Assembly (NCBI GenBank): GCA_019915135.1
Contig: JAHLMK010000020.1
Location: forward strand, 558,001 to 622,000
Reading direction: 5' to 3'
DNA from: Strobilurus pachycystidiatus
Taxonomy: Eukaryota > Basidiomycota > Agaricomycetes > Agaricales > Physalacriaceae
DNA: 64,000 nt
The first letter of the stretch is position 1. Every line of letters starts with the position of its first letter. Under the pieces are notes generated by a model, which did not search any database, was not told the DNA's origin, and saw nothing but the letters and a program-made list of their open reading frames with translations. Positions 13,366-24,460 of the stretch are shown here, piece by piece. The position numbers and the translations under genes were made by a program.

Positions 13366-14044
13366 TCACTGCGACTGTGGGCATGGGCCACGGTAAGTCG
13401 GGCTCGGGGTGGGCGGGCTTTTGGATGCTGGGCGCAGCAACGGGCGTCGCTGGACCTTGGCTCTCCGTGGGCGTCGCGATGGTGTTTGTATTGGAGATGG
13501 GCGGAGACGCGGTAGAGGGCACAGAAGGTGGAGTGGCAGTGCCATCTCCGTCTCGTCGTCGCATGACTCCTCGACTCGGCGCAGAACAATTCGGGCTCTC
13601 CTGAGTCCCAGCTGTGTAGCCTTGATCAGGATTTGGTGGCTAAAGAAAGGGCGTAAGTTGGCAAGATTGACAAAGTAAAGAGCTATACCTGGTTCTGTCA
13701 TTGCCGAACTGAGTCACTACCCAGTCCCAATTGAGTTCGCCGGACGTGTGGCTAGAATTGATCTCCTCTACGAGATTCTTGAGACGGTCGGTCTCGGTGT
13801 CAGACCATGCTCTCTGATTTCCAGCAACACCAGAAATGGTCGTCGTGAGAGGAGGCGCTGAAGTAGGTGTTGGTTGTGGGCGGGGCGTCGGTGCCGTCGT
13901 GGATGGCGGTACTGGTGCTGACGCTGGCGCTGGTGAAGCACTATAGTACGCTCCGGGAGGAGGAGGAGGCGGATAGGGAGGGTACTGATGATAATATGGA
14001 CCCGGCTGGTATGGGGAATACATGAGATACTGAGTCGGACCCAT
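13366..14044 (-). CDS. Small SANT/Myb-like protein with Pro-rich N-terminus
   Basis: Exon 14044-13689 starts at ATG 14044. It encodes a Tyr/Pro-rich head (YHQYPPYPPPPPPGAYY) and then a motif with the spacing of a SANT/Myb-like fold: RAWSDTETDRLKNLVEE...WDWVVTQFGNDRT. A 49 nt intron (13688-13640, GTATAG...TTTAG) joins in frame to SHQILIKATQLGLRR, which completes the third helix. The spliced frame stops at 13366. The proline-rich frame stays open upstream of 14044 to about 14110, so the true start may lie further up behind another intron or a frameshift. A DNA- or chromatin-binding role is an inference from the fold. The exact family is not recognised. Confidence 0.5.
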
Positions 14045-14159
14045 TGGCACCACAGAAAACTGTGGCTGATTGATGACGGTCGGAGGAGCAGAGGTTGAAG
14101 GAGGTGGAGGCGGAGGAGGGCTGGTATAAGGCGGGAACCGCAGGATACATGGGCGGAGG

Positions 14160-16409
14160 GGGCGTCGTTATCAAACGTGAGTGATTTGCGATCTGGTATG
14201 GGTCATTGGCTGCTGTGAGAGCAAGGTTTAATTTGTTATGGCGAAGACGCTTACAGGAGTGTCGCATACGCGTTTTGCTTCGTTGAGCATCACCAGCGGA
14301 TCGACTTTGCTTTTGACTGCAGAGTAGCTGGCTCGATCGTGCTTCTTTCGCGTCTGCAGGGCTGACGAAGAACACAACTTGTCTGCGCGAGGAGAGTACA
14401 ACCTGCTTTGATAAGTCGTGGGCAGAGCTAAGGCATCGCGGCAAGCGCCGAAGATCTGAAGAGAGCACGTGCAGCGCGTATGCGGGGACACTTCTATCTC
14501 AGTCTGTTACTCTCCGACTGTCGATCATCCACCATGTCTCCTTCCAAATTCAATGACAGGATATATCGGCCAAACATTTTCATCCTGAGCTCGACGGCGA
14601 CACGGCGCATACGACGAGGCGGACGCGCGAATAATTAATCAAGCCCCGGCCCCTTCATTGCACGTCATAGACGCTTCCACCGAAGTTGAGGATGCATAGT
14701 AGATTCCCGTATATCTGACCAGGCGCCATTCCTCGGATGCATCCCGCGTTACTCAAGCTTCTTCACTTATAAGCTGCTTGGTGGCACGCCAAGAAGTTCG
14801 AGAGAGAGATACCGTTACGTGCTTTTTTTCCCTTTTATCGTTTTGCACCGCTGCTTCTAGATATTCCCTCCATGCTTTGTGATCTACTGCTTTCATTGGC
14901 CTTCTTCCGCTCACAGTAACCTTTTCCCTCCCATATTGCATGTCCCCTCTCGGGTCCTTCCCCATTTCATGTCATTGTGAGTTTGTCTGGTTCATTTTGC
15001 CATTTGGACCTACTCCACTTTCTCAGGTACTCGAAGTAGTCGGGCATCGAAAATGCCACACAATTGGATTACCATTTTATGTGTGGCGGCGCGACACGCA
15101 CGAGTTTGTCTCTGAACATGGATTAGAAAGTGGCAAGTACTAAGCAGTTATCGGCAGTATGCGACTTGTGATCATATCAGAGCAACATCGACAGCACCAT
15201 CGGCCCAACACCGAGCGTACTCATAAAGGTCACTAGGTTTGGATATCGATTGCCTGTATAGAATTGCTACACTTAAAATCACCTTTGATGATTGCAGCGG
15301 CTGATGGATTCGTTCAGTGGTGAGTAATCAGTGAGCGTGGTGAGCGTCAGAAGGGACGCACTGTTTTTCCTTTCTGGTTGAATTATTATTAACTTGAATA
15401 CACCCGCATGCGTTTACGATTTTGATTCTTCCGTAGGTTCCGATCTGCGCCCTGAATGGAGGCACTTGCCCAATTTCCATACGCTTTCCGACGTCTACCC
15501 CGACTCCTGGCCCAAAAAACATGCAACAGATGGGGGTGCTTATCCGCTGCTTAGTTTTCAAAGAGAGCCGTCCTACGACGACGACAACTCAGACAAGGGC
15601 GACGATCAGTTTGGAAGTGGGCACCCGTTTTACAGCTTTGTCTGCAATATGCACGTCGAGCTCAGACGCGGCGCGCTTCTTGTCTATCACCCAATCCGCA
15701 TCCTGACGCTTTCATATTCTTCCAGATGTCCTACGTCGCCCGCCCCTCTCTAACCACAACACTACATCTGATCCAGCCTGACGTGGGCTGACGGTGGCAG
15801 CTACTGCGTCATTTCTTTCGGAAATCTCCCGCTACATCTGCGTCCGACCCATCAATGCCGGTGCGGACTTGTTCAAGGAGGGCTCAACATCGTCTTTGCC
15901 TATTCAGCTTGCGAGGAGTCGAAGTGGACAAGCAATGTTTCAACGTTGCGGGTGATACCCAATGCGTTATGCGATGCGGTGAATATTTCATACAAATTAC
16001 GCACTACCAATACATTTTCTGCACAATTCATCTGTTCAACGAGCCATCAGGTGGGTGGATAGTGACAGCAGTCACAGGCCTGATTGACGCTAGTCATTAT
16101 TCGTGTTTGCTCGGCCTCGAGACTGGAATGAGTCTCAGTATCATGAGGTCAACAACGAGAATAATGAACCAATTGCGATGCAATGGTGGGTATGAGGTTA
16201 CTTACTCGTTTTCTCTTTGTGACGACCCAGTGGCTGTCGGCAATATGCAGTAGATAACACACTCGTTGTCCGATTTCATTTGCTGATATGGAAAGTACGT
16301 ATTCCCCGTTTGACAATCGAAGAACCATACTTTCTAAACTCTCACGTCGTACGGCGTCACGACCAGGATACGTGACACCCCTGATGTCCCCCATAATCCA
16401 CGAACCATT
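14160..16409. other. No gene recognised
   Basis: Several short ORFs occur, the longest about 130 codons, but none shows a recognisable family, good codon pattern or splice structure. The segment ends at the left terminal inverted repeat of the Plavaka element. Confidence 0.4.
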
Positions 16410-16439
16410 GCATCAGGAAAACCCTCCCGGGCTAATTTG
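16410..16439 (+). repeat. Left terminal inverted repeat of the Plavaka element
   Basis: Thirty bases starting GCATCAGGAAAACCCTCCCG. It matches the reverse complement of 23170-23199 at 27 of 30 positions. It lies 109 bp outside the transposase stop codon. Confidence 0.85.
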
Positions 16440-16548
16440 AAGCATATATTGCAGAAATGTTGACAAATTCTACTAATCATGATACTCGCACTTCATTGCA
16501 AGCATTATTGTTAAAGTTGTGGATATTATAAGACAGCTCTGAAATACA

Positions 16549-19500
16549 CTACTGATACTTGTAGAAAGTACGCTGATCACGGTAATTATTGACCAAGAAC
16601 GCACCCGCCCGATCCAACACATTCTCAGACGACCACTCCGCGGGGACAACATGACCCCACTTCGGGAACAATGCTACACTTCCACAAATAAGACTAATAG
16701 GTATGACTGAGGCAAGAGGATACCCATCCCGAGCCTTGTCTCGCCGTACCAGGTGAAGGTTTGAGCGTGCATCTGGTTGTGCCGTGAACCGTGTGAACCA
16801 CTCAACATAAGCAAGATGTGGAGTAATATCAATATTAGGAGGAAACAAGGTCCCAATGCTGTTTGTTGGAAGCGCAAAAACAACTCGAACACGTCCAATG
16901 CGGAGTCCTGTTGACTGATCAGAGCTGGAACATGTCAATGACAGGGGAAGTATACCATCAAAAGCATTGTGGCTACCTGCTGTAGCATCATGAACATGCA
17001 CAAGAACAGTGTCAAAGCGAGCCATCCGCGTGACTCTGCCACTTGGTGACATTACACGAGGATGGACATGAATGGAGTCCAGAGTCTCGCCTTCGTAAAA
17101 GTCTGTATTGACAAACTTGATGCGATGGAAGACAGGTAGTGCTCGAAAAGGTAGGGCAATGTCGTGAGCAGCCTCTTCAATTTGTGCAGGAGTACTGAGT
17201 GGACTTTTGAACTGGGCAATGAACCGACAAAGTGCTGGGACAAAGACTGATGCACCATATCCTGTGACCAAGTTCTCAAGTACGGAGATTTGTACCGATT
17301 TTAGAGTGGGTGTCTTTGTCATCTTCACTGTGTATGAACACCGCAAATCAGCAAAAGAAATACGGATATGTGATCGCGCAGCAACATCACCGGTTGTTGA
17401 AGGATTAAAAGCACGCTCTTTGGACCGCCAACGAATATAGTTTGCATGGTGCATGATCTTCTCCCGTCGCTCCAACCATCTTGTCATCTGCGCATACTCG
17501 TCTTTACGGTTGGTAGAGCGGTAGGCATCCTTTGCAAAGTCGATGTGTAGACGCTCGGTGGTCTCAGTATTGTAGTTGTCTGCTGTGCCGAAGAGCCGGA
17601 TAGCGCGAGTATAGTGGTTTAGGAAGTGAAGTTTTGGGATGTTAAAGTGCTCACGAACCCCGTGAGTCACAAAAACCTTTTTGTTTGTATGAAAGGCGGC
17701 CAGCGCTGATTCCAGTTCCTTTAGGGTCTCTTCACTGTGAACAGGATAACGGGAGAGATAGAGAAAATCGAGGAGTCCACGCGTAGCACAAAGTATGGCA
17801 GTTGATGAAGCTGCCGGAAGGGGTAAATCGATCACAACACCAAGAAGGAATGCGCAGATCTGCTTGTGCTCCGTTCTGCTGACCCGCGACAGTGATGATA
17901 TGCCTTTGTGGAAGGCACGCATGCCATGATTTGGAGGAAGGCGACGAACCCGAGCATCGAGTTCGGCTTCACCCACAATGTCAGTGAGCCATGCAATGAG
18001 ATGCTTGATGACCCCTTGTAGGAGCTGATGAAGGATGTCTGGTGTGATGGAACGGAAAATATCGACGTAGGGAAGGTCTTCCCAGAATGGATGCGGCACT
18101 GGCTTAATGTTCTCGTTTGCACATAACGTAGCCCAGTCTGGAGTCCCGACACTGTTGGCAGCATGAACTGCATCATCAAAGACTCGATAGCGATAGGCGC
18201 ATGGAAAGTCTCCAAGCTCGTTGTGGGGACACTCGCACACCGGCGAGTCACCATTGTACGTGCAAGTAACAAGTACCTGCTCGGGATAATCCCCGACATA
18301 CGACGCAAAGATAGGGTGACAGCGTCGGGCCACTCCATCGCCACTCTGCATGACTAGCCCCGCAATGCCGGCTTCCTTCAATCCCTCGAGAATACGCTTG
18401 AGACATGCATGGAAAAGATTGGCAAGTGTGCGGCGACGCGCGGTCTTGTTCTCGATATGCTCAAGTTTCGATGATGGCAAGTATGCGAGCAGAACTTGGC
18501 CGTTACGCGATGGTTTGCGGCGAATATCCTTCGGGAGGTTCCCAATGGTCAAGTACACCGGATATGCTGTCTTGTTTCGAAACAGCGTCACCTGAGTCTT
18601 GTCGGATGAGAGGATGACCGGAATGATAGTAGCACCAGGTGTATTGGCCTCAACAGCTTTCTAAAAAACAACTGCACTGAGCAGACTGACGATGGAGTTA
18701 TCAGAGGAATGGTACCTGAGTGTCCCACCACCACCGACCTGTATGGAAATCATGAAATAAACGCATCGTCTTGTCCGCATCGGTGTAATGTCGTTCGGGG
18801 GCAAAGCAGAGATACTCCATATGCTGAGGGTCGCCATAAAGGGCGCGGATACACTCAATGACATCGCGACGGTACAAATCAAAGGACCTATCGGCAATGA
18901 CAACCTCCTCGAGGAAGAATTTTGGGCGAGCAGAGGGAAGCCGTTTATCGATGATGGCATTGAGCTCAGTCGTTGTTTTGAAGCTCAAGCCAAGGCGGTC
19001 CCGAACCTTATATAATGTCAGGAATGCGCTGGAAGTTAGATGGCGTACTTACTTCGTCAATGCCAAGAAGACGTGTGAATGACGACGCACTTGGACCATC
19101 CATTTTAGCCCATTGCGCTACCTCCCACTCTAATTTAGAGGAGAATGGCGCGTACAGCTCCGGACGCTCGCCTTCCAGGTGAGGAAGAGCTGACCCGTAG
19201 GCTTCAAAGCTGTTACGCGACACGCTGTGTGCAGGAATTGAGGCACCAGCAGACCCTCCAAAGTGAGTGACAAAAACTTCTGCCTCGCGTTCCGTGTCTG
19301 CAATCTTCCGGCTGGGTGCAATGACAGGGCCCGTAACCTCATCCTCATCAACATCCATCGCAACGTCCGAGTCCTGTGTCGCGTTAGGACGCACTGGCTC
19401 CCATTGACCCTGTAGATCCTCGCCTCCTTCTTCATCCGAGTCCTCCTCCTCATCATCTCGTTCGGAGGGTACCTCTTCATCAGAGCTAGTTCCAGGACCG

Positions 19501-19862
19501 CCGAGTCCAGGAAAATCGGCCGCAGTATAGTCATCAACTGGCCCAAAGGCATCGCCTTGGAAACGAGGTAAATCCAAGTCGGGATCCGTCTCTGGGGCTG
19601 GACTTGGCTCGCGATTGGGCACCGTGGTCGAACTCTGAGCGGTATCCGTGACCGTCGCAGCACCAGATGGCGAACGAGAACGAGAACGCCGTCTCGCAGG
19701 ATCTCGTCGGGGTAGACCGTCGCTTGGGCGGATCTTGCGCGTGTACGTTTCACCGGCTGCCTGGCATGATTTGCTCTGGGTACGAGTGAAGTGCTGAACA
19801 AGATCACTAGTGCGTTCGAATTCGCGCTCGCAAGCAGCACATTTAAGACTTGAATCAGCCAT
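16549..19862 (-). CDS. Plavaka family transposase, 1070 aa, three exons
   Basis: Exons 19862-19053, 19006-18716 and 18660-16549 join in phase 0 across introns of 46 nt (GTAAGT...ATAAG) and 55 nt (GTACCA...TTTTAG), giving 1070 residues. The N-terminus has a zinc finger (LKCAACEREFERTSDLVQHF). An acidic, Ser-rich linker follows (about residues 60-190), then the conserved body. Plavaka hallmarks are ITPDILHQLLQG near residue 580, and KLHFLNHYTRAIR with TTERLHIDFAKDAYRSTNRK near residue 720-745, in the RNase H-like catalytic region. The product should bind the element ends and carry out transposition. It is transcribed away from the DUF6532 gene from a shared intergenic region. No lesion was found. 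Confidence 0.9.
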
Positions 19863-20092
19863 AGATCAGTTGAATAAGCAAAGGAAAGATGTGAGATAAG
19901 GATAAAATGATCGGATATTCGGCGCGTGTCTAGACATTCTAGAGTAACCGACGCGGAATCTATTGAAACACAGAAATTACTGGATCTGGAATGTAAGAAA
20001 GCGATAAAAGCGCGTCGTGAAACGAAGGAACTCACCATTCTACAACCCACAACTCTCAATCCTAACTACCCACAGCATACTCTCAAAGATAC
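19863..20092. promoter_or_regulatory. Shared intergenic promoter region of the two transposon genes
   Basis: 230 bp between the divergent start codons of the Plavaka transposase (ATG 19862, minus) and the DUF6532 gene (ATG 20093, plus). No clear TATA box was seen on either strand. The layout implies coordinated, bidirectional expression, which is inferred from geometry only. Confidence 0.45.
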
Positions 20093-22731
20093 ATGCCGCC
20101 GCCCAAAGCAAATCGCAAGGCGTCTGCGGCCCTGTCAGACACGTCCAATATGAACACAACACGTCGTGAGTTTGATATCCAGTTCAACTAGAAGCACTTA
20201 CCTTTGATGATATAGCCAAACGTGCTGCTGCCCTCAAGCAGGCAACCGCGGCGGCACTCGCATCTACGAGGAAGGCCGCTACCAAGAATACCAAAACCGT
20301 TAAGAAGGTTGGTAACGGCGCCGCGGCAAGTAGTAACTCGACCGTCATTGGGAGCCAGTCGGCACCGGCTGTCTTGAAGCGCAAAGGGGCCGAGATCTCC
20401 TCTTTTGCATCGAGCCAGCACGGTCAGTACCTGTTGTAGACGTCAGGATTGATACTGATTAGTTGTTGTTCAGAGGAACCCATTCCGAGTCTTGATCTAC
20501 GTACCGGCAAAGAGCTCCCTCGTCATGTTGTGAAACAGTTGACGCGGAGTAAGAGCAACGGTATGTCTTGTTGCCGCATTGTCTTGGGTTGATAGCTCTG
20601 ATGGATCGTGTTGTAGAGGGAAAGTTTCAAGCCCCCGCAATGCTGACGGATGAGGAAGAGGTTAATCCGGCCGTCAATGCACATGATAGTAAGTCGAAGA
20701 CTCTTCTGATTGAACGGTGGGGAAATTTAAGATACCTCAGATCAACGGACAATCAAGAAATCCGCCCAGTCCCTGAGTAGAAACGCCCGCGTAGACGATT
20801 CCGACGACTCCGACGATGAAAATGGGCAAGTCGATCAACTTGAAGATGACACGGCGGAGAGCGAAGATGAACGCGCCGAGGACAATGAAGACGCGCTGAA
20901 GCTCTTCGAAGATGAAGTCAATGATGGTGGCCGATATCCAAGACGTGTGCACTCACCTGACCGATACTGTACAAGACTGTACAGGCTGCGCGCATTGTGC
21001 CCAGAGCAGTCAAGGCCGGAAGGAACATGACCGGTGAGTCCAAGAGCCGATCGAGCCTTATTCCCACGCTGACATGTTGACCTTCTCCCATCATCTTAGG
21101 CGACCGCGACACTGACGACGCCGAAGAGCACAACGCTCATCTAGTCAGCCACATCTCCAATGGAGATGACGACGGAACCATGGACGACGCTGGTGACGAC
21201 AATGGTACGACCCGCATTCCAGAAGGGCTTAGCAAAGCCAAAGACGTTCTTACTGATCGACTTGCGCGAGCAGGCGTCGATGTTGAACATCCGGAAATAC
21301 GGGCTATGATTCTGGTGCGTGGTTTACTCTTCCTTTGAATTGAGCTAACTTCCAAACAGGAGGAAATTGACCACGTTTACGCCACGGCCTTGGACAAGTC
21401 TCCTGCTGTGCCTGCTCGAGGACGCCGTCGCAAGAATCCACAGAGTGCTGGAAGGCGCCCCCAAGACGAGGTGTGTAACAGCTGAGCTGTCATACATGCT
21501 GCTAATACTCTTCAGATTCCCTCGTTCCCCGCGAGCAATCCACCTCGCCCTGCTCCCCTTCCTCCCTCCATCTGTTCTCTTGACCGTCACGGTCCCACTC
21601 CAAATTTTTCACTCACCGGTCAGCATCCCGACTCGGATGATCAGGTCTTTCTCTTCCATACGAGGATCACGGTTGTTCGACACGGGCGCCGATTCTACCT
21701 GACCAAACGCGATCAAACTTCCGAGATCGAGCAAACTCTTCGGGGCGCTATTCGCATCGTCGCCCGCCTTATGGGTATCAATCCCGAGAACCCTAACTTC
21801 GTACCATTCAATCAAGACCACATCGAGACACTCTGCCTGGACACACTTCTCACTGCTGCTACGGACCTAGGATTCGACGGATCTGGCGATATACGTGATC
21901 GCCTATTGAATGGTGACTATGAGAAGTATATTCGGCCCATGCGGGCATATGTGAGTACTTGTCAGGAATCGTCGATCCGGATTTCTTACCCTCTCTCTAG
22001 ATACAGCAACGTGCTATCCTTCTACGGTCGGATGTCAAGAAGGTCGCCGCTGCCATTGTTCCCACTCTTCTCCATCTCGAGAAGACGGATGGAGGTCGCC
22101 GCAAGTGCAAGGAGTATCTCGACGGGTTTGCTTACGCGTACGGCACTACTGCTGCAGTGCGTACATCATCATCCAGGAAGAAAATTATTAACATGCATCT
22201 CTTATTAGGGCCTAACTGATCACGGCAAGCCTCTCGGGTCACCGATGATTCCAAGGCTCGTCACCGCTGCATATGGTGACCATAACTCGTCCATTCTCTC
22301 TAAGCATGCCGACAATCTGACGTCAATCTTCACCGAGGGCCCTCAGTCAAAGGAACGGGAGGTCACTCCCTTGATGGTTGCAATGACATTGACTGCCGTA
22401 TGTTGACCTCTTGTGCACGTTCCTTGACTGACCTGTCTCTAGGCACGCGCTGTGATCGCAGAGATCGCCCACAACGCGAAGGAGGAGTTCTGCGGTTCCA
22501 ATCTCGAGAACGTGTTCAAGACGCATCTTGTGATGTTGAACGGCCTGCGCGAGAAACGTCCCGCATACTATCACAGGCTTATGCACCAAATCTATGTCAG
22601 CGCCAGGTGAGTTTCTGGCCGTCTCTAATTCTCTATTTGACGACTTTGATAGCGGAGCGATCCCTAACGCAACTCACGGTCTCTCGGCTGACGAGATCCT
22701 GAACGCCATCGATTGGGACGCCATCGACTAG
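20093..22731 (+). CDS. DUF6532 protein, 670 aa, thirteen exons, inside the Plavaka element
   Basis: Proposed exons: 20093-20165, 20216-20422, 20474-20560, 20617-20688, 20741-20916, 20985-21033, 21100-21314, 21360-21470, 21516-21950, 22001-22156, 22209-22397, 22443-22606, 22653-22731. Introns are 45-68 nt, all GT-AG, and the sum is 2013 nt in one open frame. The N-terminal third is basic (Ala/Lys-rich, RKAATKNTKTVKKVGN), then strongly acidic (DDSDDSDDENG). The C-terminal 270 residues match the agaricomycete DUF6532 pattern: a predicted helical core, EVTPLMVAMTLTAARAVIAE, and LREKRPAYYHRLMHQIY near the end. The domain's function is unknown to me. Its place between the inverted repeats, divergent from the transposase, marks it as element-borne. 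A chromatin, DNA-binding or accessory-transposition role is only a guess from the charged N-terminus. The donor at 20917 (GTCAAT) is the weakest splice call. Confidence 0.78.
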
Positions 22732-23169
22732 TTGAACTTTTGAGATATGTATGAGTATGTGTCATTGCCTTTGTTCTCTTGCTCTCAATCCTGTACCAAC
22801 CTAATTCGTACCCCACTCGACTACCTTCTCTCCTGTTCTCTCGTCTCTCGTCCTCTTCCCTTTGTGCATATCATTATTCTTTTTCTTATATACATTTGCG
22901 TCCCAACTGTATCATGCCTCGTCATCGAGACCAATCTGAAATGTCATTCGTATTATCTACTAGAGCATGAAGAGTAATAACTGCCAGGAATGTACAGAAA
23001 AGAGCTTGGTATTGAAAGCGGTAATATGTCTGAAACATGCACGAAATGTCTTCATAAGTGTCCCTAATCTAAAATGGGTGTCAAGTGACCGCTTTCACTG
23101 CACTAATGTGGCGAAAAGTGGTAAGTCGGCGGATTACCATAGTTCACAGCATTTCGACGGTATTGTCGA

Positions 23170-23199
23170 CAAATTACCACGGGAGCGTTTTCCTGATGC
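23170..23199 (-). repeat. Right terminal inverted repeat of the Plavaka element
   Basis: On the minus strand it reads GCATCAGGAAAACGCTCCCG and onward, 27 of 30 identical to the left repeat at 16410-16439. It lies 438 bp beyond the DUF6532 stop codon. Confidence 0.85.
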
Positions 23200-24460
23200 T
23201 TTACATGTACATACAAAACTCAATTGCTCTTACTCTTGACGTGACGGCAGCAGTTGGCAAGGCACGATTCCGAAGGCACATACCAAGAAGTTCAGACTGA
23301 CAGGTGATTGATGAATAGGTCCCAGCAGACACAGGCTGCTCGGCTTCAAGAGGGGAACTTGAAAGTGGGTCCCCTTCTTCTTAATCAGTAGTGAAATCGT
23401 GTTCGCGAATGTCAGTGTCGGCACGAATATTTCCATCGATGTACTAGTGCACTCAGGTTCATCATTCAGCTGCACCGCCCCGACGCGACCGACGTCGCCA
23501 ATCCACTCTTACCGGTTCTGATCGGAGGTAGGCTTCAATGATTATACCAACGTTCTGCCGGACCTCTTGATATAAGCCGTATACTCGTGGAATCCCTCCG
23601 ACGGCCGCGTGAGGGAATAAGATGATAGAACTCATATTGATGTCGAAAACGACAGCCTGAAGTGTTTGGAACGTGAAGAGTGGCGCGCGATACTTCGGTG
23701 GCGGAAATGCCATACATCCCCAGACGACTGACAAGGCTAGGACCAATGTATTCCAGAAGCTCATACACTAGAGAGCGCCTTGCTTCAAGCTCAAGGGGAT
23801 TGACGGGCTAGAGTAATTGTAGATTTTGACCTAATGCCATCTTTTCGATGGCTTTCTGCGTCGCAAGGAAGGTATCATCGACGCGACTGAGAGCAGAAGA
23901 GCACGCAAATCTGTAATTCGTATGTAGTAGGCTTGTGTCTGATACCATCGAAGACGCGGGGAGGGTCCATTCCAGGATACTACGCTTCCGGACCGGGTAA
24001 CAACGTCCAGAACGCTAATTGAATGTAGAAATCGCGGACACGGAGGGCGAGGTGTAAATGAGACAGTCAAAGGGGGCCGACCGATACAAGCATATTAACC
24101 CAGACATGAGCGCTCCCGGAAGCACGGCTGAACAGAACGCGCGTCGAGGCAGCAGGAGTCTGGCAGGAGTCAAGAGACGGCGCGCATCTCGACCCTGCCT
24201 GATTGGGCGGCATTTGTCAACCGGCCTACATACGTCTTTCTTCCCTCTCACCGTCTTCTTCGTTTCCTCTGAGTCTGGGTCTGCACTTCATGACAGACGG
24301 AGGCCTCCGAGCAATAGGGTGCACTTTCGTCGCTCTATTATTTGCGTGCGACTTTATTGGCGGCAGCTCGGAGTCTGAGCGAAAATCGGTGGGACATTAG
24401 GGCGCATAGCGCGTCAGTTTCCTCACCCGGTGTGTTGTCTTTGTTTTCCATCTCGCATGG
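23200..24460. other. No gene recognised
   Basis: Minus-strand ORFs of 80-100 codons at 23.23-23.77 kb include one hydrophobic start (MSFWNTLVLALSVVWGCMA), but no family or consistent splice structure emerges. This is ancestral flank of the Plavaka insertion. Confidence 0.35.

What the first reader, a model, noticed from the sequence alone, without database searches (positions are those of the whole stretch)
16410..23199. Two-gene Plavaka transposon: transposase plus divergent DUF6532 gene inside one pair of inverted repeats
The sequence shows 30 bp terminal inverted repeats (27/30 identical), flanking TT dinucleotides, a full-length spliced Plavaka transposase and, head-to-head with it, a full-length 13-exon gene with a C-terminal DUF6532-like domain. 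Plavaka is an established fungal transposase class, and DUF6532 is an expanded agaricomycete domain of unknown function. I am not aware of DUF6532 being described as a component of these elements. If the pairing recurs, DUF6532 expansions may reflect transposon spread, and the protein may be an accessory transposition or anti-silencing factor.
Basis: partly seen in the sequence, partly recalled or inferred. Interest (0 to 1): 0.88.

Follow-up and report, generated by a model that had tools for sequence, protein, structure and literature searches.

The report
Mushroom transposon carrying a DUF6532 gene
This stretch of a mushroom genome is a jumping-DNA element that carries, besides its own transposase, a conserved second gene of unknown function (DUF6532); the pair recurs across the genome and moves as one unit, which points to an unassigned protein family being part of the transposon.

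Summary
Window 16410-23199 is one element with 30-bp inverted ends (27/30), an intact predicted 3-exon Plavaka transposase (1070 aa, minus strand) and, head-to-head, an intact predicted 13-exon DUF6532 gene (670 aa). The pairing recurs. In the host genome (51.8 Mb) I found 28 DUF6532 loci; 24 lie in a head-to-head pair with a Plavaka transposase. In 19 of 19 pairs whose two ends were located, both genes lie between ends of type CATC[A/T]GG (CATCACG in one); 16 of the 19 show a perfect 2-bp target duplication. One family moved as a whole unit: 7 copies, ends 99-100% identical, 7 of 7 with duplications. Transposase and DUF6532 distances correlate (Mantel r 0.96), and DUF6532 is under purifying selection. 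So DUF6532 is an integral component of PlavakaB-type transposons here. Its function is inferred: most likely an accessory protein acting on the element's own DNA, as TNPA does in plant CACTA elements; anti-silencing is the main rival. The window copy's own TSD (TT) is ambiguous. No held paper that I found links DUF6532 to a transposon.

The parts
16410..16439 (+). left terminal inverted repeat (transposase side), GCATCAGGAAAAC...
   Evidence: 27/30 identical to the right end; same kind of end in 18 other pairs
23170..23199 (-). right terminal inverted repeat (DUF6532 side)
16408..16409 (.). left flanking TT (possible 2-bp target duplication)
   Evidence: a duplication only if the outer G..C belongs to the element
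23200..23201 (.). right flanking TT (possible 2-bp target duplication)
16549..19862 (-). Plavaka transposase gene, 3 exons (19862-19053, 19006-18716, 18660-16549), 1070 aa, no stops
   Evidence: PF18759 E=2.4e-113
19863..20092 (.). 230-bp head-to-head intergenic region, presumed divergent promoter
   Evidence: coordinates; promoter role inferred
20093..22731 (+). DUF6532 gene, 13 exons, 670 aa: basic N-terminus, acidic middle, C-terminal DUF6532
   Evidence: (PF20149 E=1.7e-17)

Best explanation
The region is an apparently complete two-gene DNA transposon of the PlavakaB type (CACTA/EnSpm-related). SHOWN by sequence: the DUF6532 gene lies between the element's ends, is paired with the transposase at 24 of 28 DUF6532 loci in this genome, has diverged along with it, and is kept under purifying selection. 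One related family moved repeatedly as a whole. INFERRED: the DUF6532 protein is a working part of the transposition system rather than a passenger. The most likely way it works: it is made from the divergent promoter together with the transposase, enters the nucleus (basic N-terminus), and with its fast-evolving C-terminal domain recognises the element's own DNA and/or its transposase to help assemble or licence excision and insertion. That would make it a functional analogue, not a homologue, of TNPA in plant En/Spm. My confidence is about 0.95 for 'integral transposon gene in this genome' and about 0.45 for this mechanism; the figure below is for the two taken together.
For: 24 of 28 DUF6532 loci pair head-to-head with a Plavaka transposase, and both genes lie inside the located ends in 19 of 19 pairs. 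Seven copies of one family have both 150-bp ends 99-100% identical, both genes inside and 7 of 7 with a 2-bp target duplication: mobilised as a unit. Transposase and DUF6532 distances of ten non-redundant copies agree (Mantel r 0.957, 0 of 20,000 permutations as high; within groups 2/120 and 5/120). DUF6532 dN/dS in the three pairs with dS below 1.3: 0.19 (window vs C9 copy), 0.17 (window vs the relic C6:1224), 0.03 (C2 vs C37). DUF6532 evolves faster than the transposase (48% against 79% identity, window vs C10). In Mucidula mucida a DUF6532 protein and a Plavaka transposase are listed on contigs of identical length, 269,066 bases. Precedent: TNPA, a 67-kD DNA-binding protein of 11 exons required with the transposase TNPD (PMC2613891 passages).
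Against: No subterminal repeats, the hallmark of TNPA sites, were found in the window's ends (0 repeated 8-mers; composition-matched controls average 1.7); only 1 of 13 elements tested (C19) exceeded all controls. No DNA-binding or enzymatic Pfam family reached its cut-off in two close relatives and no solved structure matched significantly. The two trees disagree on the order of C25 and C9_471 with support above 0.97 in each. The window and its nearest relative share a DUF6532 half at dS 0.095 but a transposase half at dS 0.84, so combinations can be reshuffled. No functional data.
Confidence: 0.5

Rival explanations
1. DUF6532 is a transposon-encoded anti-silencing factor: it counteracts DNA methylation or heterochromatin on the element's copies, as VANC does for VANDAL elements in Arabidopsis and as TET/JBP is proposed to do in other fungal transposons.
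For: Integral, selected and fast-evolving gene, as expected of a factor in an arms race. Plavaka, EnSpm and KDZ elements of fungi sometimes carry TET/JBP genes (PMC12730594). VANC is a sequence-specific TE-encoded anti-silencing protein (PMC5735166 abstract).
Against: No dioxygenase, chromatin or methyl-binding domain found by Pfam. No methylation data. VANC targets often form tandem repeats (PMC5735166 abstract); the window's ends show no excess of repeats.
Confidence: 0.27
2. DUF6532 is an old passenger gene (cargo) that rides with the transposon and serves the host or the element in a way unrelated to transposition.
For: Four of 28 DUF6532 loci have no Plavaka match within 25 kb (C20:265, C6:1224, C13:1359, C20:123). 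Group II elements carry a further unknown gene, so these transposons can hold extra genes.
Against: It is kept beside three groups of transposases that are only about 40% identical to each other and tracks their divergence in the two groups that could be measured. Two of the four orphans keep an element end beside the gene (C6:1224 at 1223662; C20:123 at 122171, 76% match), so they look like relics.
Confidence: 0.2
3. Chance neighbours: a Plavaka element inserted beside a host DUF6532 gene, or two nested elements.
For: TE-rich contig (9 of 62 Plavaka loci on C20 against 1.1 expected).
Against: Both genes are inside the same ends in 19 of 19 pairs with both ends located; 24 of 28 loci paired in one orientation; seven whole-unit copies with target duplications.
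Confidence: 0.02

Closest known systems
PlavakaB DNA transposons (Kojima 2025, PMC12730594; abstract, section 3.2 and passages seen)
   Same: Plavaka transposase (PF18759), termini CATCA..TGATG, 2-bp duplications in 16 of 19 copies with both ends
   Different: The text seen describes Plavaka with or without a TET/JBP gene and names no DUF6532 gene; here there is no TET/JBP, but a DUF6532 gene, plus a third unknown gene in one lineage
Plant CACTA En/Spm with TNPD (transposase) and TNPA (DNA-binding) (PMC2613891 passages)
   Same: Same broad superfamily by Kojima's account; transposase plus a fast-evolving multi-exon second protein
   Different: No TNPA/TNP1 family matched; two separate divergent genes rather than alternative splicing; no subterminal repeats detected in the window copy
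VANDAL elements with VANC anti-silencing protein (PMC5735166 abstract)
   Same: A transposon-encoded second protein beside the transposase
   Different: Different transposase superfamily (Mutator-like, recalled); no anti-silencing evidence here
TET/JBP-carrying Plavaka of Agaricus bisporus and Gymnopus confluens (PMC12730594, section 3.2)
   Same: PlavakaB with an extra gene
   Different: The extra gene is a TET/JBP dioxygenase; no such domain in the window's two proteins

Membership tests
PlavakaB transposon | Plavaka transposase domain PF18759 | tested here: met
   E=2.4e-113, model positions 1-325 of 325
PlavakaB transposon | termini CATCA..TGATG | tested here: met
   Window GCATCAGG..CCTGATGC, one extra base outside; relatives CATCAGG, CATCTGG at one end of some, CATCACG in C19
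PlavakaB transposon | 2-3 bp target site duplication, window copy | tested here: inconclusive
   TT/TT only if the outer G..C is counted as element; TG/CT otherwise
PlavakaB transposon | 2-3 bp target site duplication, family | tested here: met
   16 of 19 pairs with both ends located have a perfect 2-bp duplication
PlavakaB transposon | C(2)C and H(3-4)H motifs before the last catalytic E (feature from PMC12730594) | tested here: inconclusive
   By eye: H(3)H present (LHFLNHY) and TERLH present; the first C of the relatives' CPxC is S in the window. The paper's own alignment was not seen.
PlavakaB transposon | placement in the PlavakaB clade of a transposase tree | not tested
   No labelled PlavakaA/B reference sequences at hand
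TET-positive Plavaka | TET/JBP gene inside the element | tested here: not met
   Pfam scan of both window proteins: no such domain
CACTA with TNPA-type accessory protein | second element-encoded protein beside the transposase | tested here: met
CACTA with TNPA-type accessory protein | subterminal repeats as binding sites | tested here: not met
   Window 0 repeated 8-mers; 1 of 13 elements above all controls
CACTA with TNPA-type accessory protein | sequence homology to TNPA/TNP1 families | tested here: not met
   Pfam scan of two close relatives, P0123 and P0001, to E=10: no such family
CACTA with TNPA-type accessory protein | protein needed for transposition | not testable with these tools
   needs an assay
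VANC-type anti-silencing system | loss of methylation on element copies | not testable with these tools
   needs methylation data

The most novel reading that the evidence does not exclude
DUF6532 as a family is at root a transposon protein: a conserved, rapidly evolving partner of PlavakaB transposases that acts on the element's own DNA. Its copies in mushroom genomes would then largely record the spread of these two- and three-gene transposons, making it a new class of fungal transposition or anti-silencing factor.
Probability: 0.45. Interest if true: 0.76.

Novelty: new variant of a known kind. Interest (0 to 1): 0.63.

Why it matters
That makes its function directly testable. It suggests that PlavakaB elements, like plant CACTA elements, may need a second protein. 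Annotators who count DUF6532 genes as host genes may be counting transposons.

Tried and rejected
Nested or chance insertion: rejected (19 of 19 pairs with both ends located have both genes inside).

Subterminal repeats as support for a TNPA-like role: a first test against shuffles looked positive for several elements of one group; composition-matched genomic controls removed this except for one element, C19. I do not use it as support.

Wider protein search for DUF6532: two searches gave only 2 and 4 hits, probably because the protein evolves too fast for the word filter, so recurrence across species rests on one probably linked pair. The third search went to the transposase: 1439 hits among 8000 scored candidates, 120 listed. 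Scans of viral contigs and genome contigs with a Plavaka profile found no relative.

A PDB profile search gave nothing significant, best E 0.38.

Gene models: my spliced-alignment script gave good models for groups I and II (II: scores 259-484 against at most 30.4 on the opposite strand), but failed on C4, C57, C20_405 and C20_265 (implausible many-exon or tiny models). Those loci rest on the Pfam match alone and were left out of the trees. Also left out of the Mantel test: C20_177 and C7 (near-duplicates), C13:1244 (decayed transposase, 23 'exons'), C6:1224 and C13:1359 (no transposase). The C25 transposase, kept in, has a 12-exon model. One locus of the weaker Plavaka lineage (C2:2959637) showed no credible DUF6532 in 4.4 kb upstream (best score 53.5 in 18 'exons'); a single locus, so weak.

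Full report
WHAT IS THERE. Window 16410-23199 (6,790 bp) is bounded by inverted repeats identical at 27 of 30 positions. Inside are two genes, head-to-head with 230 bp between them. The minus-strand gene (19862-16549, 3 exons) encodes 1070 aa; Pfam Plavaka PF18759 matches over its full length (E=2.4e-113). The plus-strand gene (20093-22731, 13 exons, introns 45-68 nt, chosen as GT-AG) encodes 670 aa; DUF6532 PF20149 matches at residues 467-623 (E=1.7e-17). Neither spliced frame has a stop. The gene models are predictions without RNA data.

THE PAIR RECURS. The host genome (51.8 Mb, 61 contigs, unnamed; the nearest proteins found are from Mucidula and Hymenopellis) was searched with PF18759 (102 matches, which I merged by hand into 62 loci), with PF20149 (13 matches) and with two DUF6532 proteins of different groups. 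The union, made by hand, is 28 DUF6532 loci; those outside the 13 rest on protein similarity, except the window and C19, which also match PF20149. A Plavaka match lies within 25 kb of 24 of the 28; expectation for random placement with the right orientation is about 1.5% per locus. The script's nearest-match rule gave 23 head-to-head; the 24th (C16:202354) was assigned to a Plavaka fragment outside the element, and its own transposase at C16:208354, between the same ends, is head-to-head. Copies are not independent; collapsed by me to 17 lineages, 13 are paired, still far from chance (P about 4e-21). By transposase score, 24 of 29 strong Plavaka loci (150 bits or more) have a partner (23 by the script's rule plus the C16 correction). 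The five without are C7:2004, C14:682, C5:2860 and C1:469, whose matches are split and contain in-frame stops (stops can also be introns), and C13:1236, a partial match; the sequence beside four of them could not be fetched, so their lack of a partner rests on the genome-wide searches. None of 33 weaker loci is the partner of a DUF6532 gene after the same correction; one of them was opened and showed none. A check not steered by a known partner: C37, C19 and C10 were first fetched before I knew of a DUF6532 gene there, and 3 of 3 have one (C10 15.5 kb away). For C19 the stitched exons match PF20149 at E=1.6e-13; C37 scores 471 against 27 on the opposite strand.

BOTH GENES LIE INSIDE THE SAME ENDS. 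For 19 of the 24 pairs I located both ends (CATC[A/T]GG, CATCACG in C19), and in 19 of 19 both genes lie between them: the window, C9:512772-519584, C9:470871-478486, C25:357764-366145, C57:4906-12066, C4:158232-164375, C9:797428-807302, C2:1377237-1387271, C14:1261902-1273656, C20:176236-190641, C10:1563447-1582158, C19:583439-594249 and seven C37-type copies. For the other five: one end only for C7, C5:2705 and C6:2224, none found for C20:405 and C13:1244. Perfect 2-bp target duplications flank 16 of the 19; the exceptions are the window, C9:512772 and C9:470871. The seven C37-type copies have both 150-bp ends 99-100% identical, a Plavaka gene and a DUF6532 gene inside, and 7 of 7 carry duplications (CA, TG, TG, GT, TA, TA, TC): the unit moved as a whole, by the identity probably recently. 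A 1.4-kb non-autonomous element with window-type ends and an AA duplication lies at C3:529160-530603.

CO-INHERITANCE AND SELECTION. Transposase and DUF6532 distances of ten non-redundant copies correlate (Mantel r 0.957, 0 of 20,000 permutations; within group I r 0.961, 2 of 120; within group II r 0.788, 5 of 120). The trees share the clusters window/C9_513, these with C10, C2/C37 and C14/C9_799/C7. They differ in the order of C25 and C9_471 (support above 0.97 in each tree, across a very long branch to group II) and, weakly supported, in where group I joins group II. DUF6532 changes faster (window vs C10: 48% against 79% for the transposase). Groups I and II are only 11-20% identical in the domain; their homology rests on both matching PF20149 and on a profile comparison (E 8.7e-5, probability 60%, against E 0.03 and 0.1 for two control comparisons). 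dN/dS of DUF6532 was computed for nine pairs: with dS below 1.3, 0.19 (window vs C9 copy, 464 codons), 0.17 (window vs the relic C6:1224) and 0.03 (C2 vs C37, 165 codons); with dS above 2, 0.29 and 0.13; three pairs were saturated and one had no synonymous change. The gene has been kept for its protein. Against a simple story: the window and the C9 copy differ by dS 0.84 in the transposase but 0.095 in DUF6532, so one half was exchanged or converted between copies.

OTHER SPECIES. The transposase family is widespread in Agaricomycetes (1439 hits, 120 listed). For DUF6532 only four relatives were found. One of the three named ones, from Mucidula mucida (P0002), is listed on a contig of 269,066 bases, the same length as for a Mucidula Plavaka transposase (P0004, 77% identical to the window's): very probably the same contig, distance unknown. 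The other two (P0001, P0123) showed no such match in the 120 listed.

HOW IT PROBABLY WORKS. Shown: inside the element, paired, co-diverging, selected, divergently arranged with the transposase. Inferred: an accessory protein acting on the element. The protein has a basic N-terminus (13 K/R, 1 D/E in the first 67 residues), an acidic middle and a C-terminal domain without recognised motif. The nearest functional precedent is TNPA of En/Spm, a 67-kD DNA-binding protein of 11 exons that is required with TNPD (PMC2613891, passages). The hallmark subterminal repeats are missing in the window, so I hold the mechanism at about 0.45. Anti-silencing (VANC-like, PMC5735166 abstract; or in the sense proposed for TET/JBP, PMC12730594) is the main rival at about 0.27.

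MEMBERSHIP AND NOVELTY. By transposase domain, end sequence and family TSD this fits PlavakaB as described in PMC12730594 (abstract, passages and section 3.2 seen); a clade test was not done. The text seen names TET/JBP as the extra gene of some PlavakaB; the main text holds no DUF6532 (its single 'DUF' hit is an author name); its supplements and figures were not seen. Full-text searches: DUF6532 and PF20149 each occur in one paper, PMC8955403, which only lists them with Plavaka among domains of some Ganoderma (passage). Plavaka occurs in 11 records, of which I saw passages in eight without finding a second gene of this kind; the rest were seen in the listing only. One of the eight (PMC8290104) keeps its Plavaka ends in a supplement that I did not see. 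Iyer et al. 2014, cited there for Plavaka, is not held and could mention it. Verdict: new variant of a known kind.

Noticed in passing
C19:588962-591226, C37 about 104750-107350, C2:1382131-1384355 (host genome; L060, L058 with L007, L103): Group II elements carry a third conserved gene of roughly 700 aa between transposase and DUF6532, on the DUF6532 strand (pieces 42-60% identical between elements; no Pfam match for the C19 pieces). Fragments also seen in C14, C7 and C9:799, where the middle was not fetched.
   Followed up: partly
window 16410-23199 vs C9:512772-519584: Mosaic: transposase half 83.6% and DUF6532 half 95.7% identical at DNA level, dS 0.84 vs 0.095, suggesting exchange or conversion between copies.
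   Followed up: partly
C3:529160-530603 (L064): Short non-autonomous element with window-type ends and an AA target duplication; a natural substrate for a transposition assay.
   Followed up: no
C16:200718-200879 and C16:211248-211511: Weak Plavaka fragments directly flank the C16 copy (201070-211242), which may have inserted into another Plavaka gene.
   Followed up: no
contig C20 (926 kb, holds the window): 9 of 62 Plavaka loci lie on C20 against 1.1 expected; the contig may be a transposon-rich region.
   Followed up: no
C9:311320-338243: One C37-type copy spans 26.9 kb instead of 10.2 kb, so about 16.8 kb is inserted between its ends.
   Followed up: no
window 16984-17343 (transposase residues 807-926): Weak match to DUF6830 PF20722 below its cut-off (E 0.007); several related transposases carry PF20722 precomputed, so DUF6830 may be their C-terminal domain.
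   Followed up: no
window 13640-14167, minus strand: Proline-rich open frame with a stretch that looks Myb/SANT-like by eye (WSDTETDRLKNLVEE); no search made.
   Followed up: no
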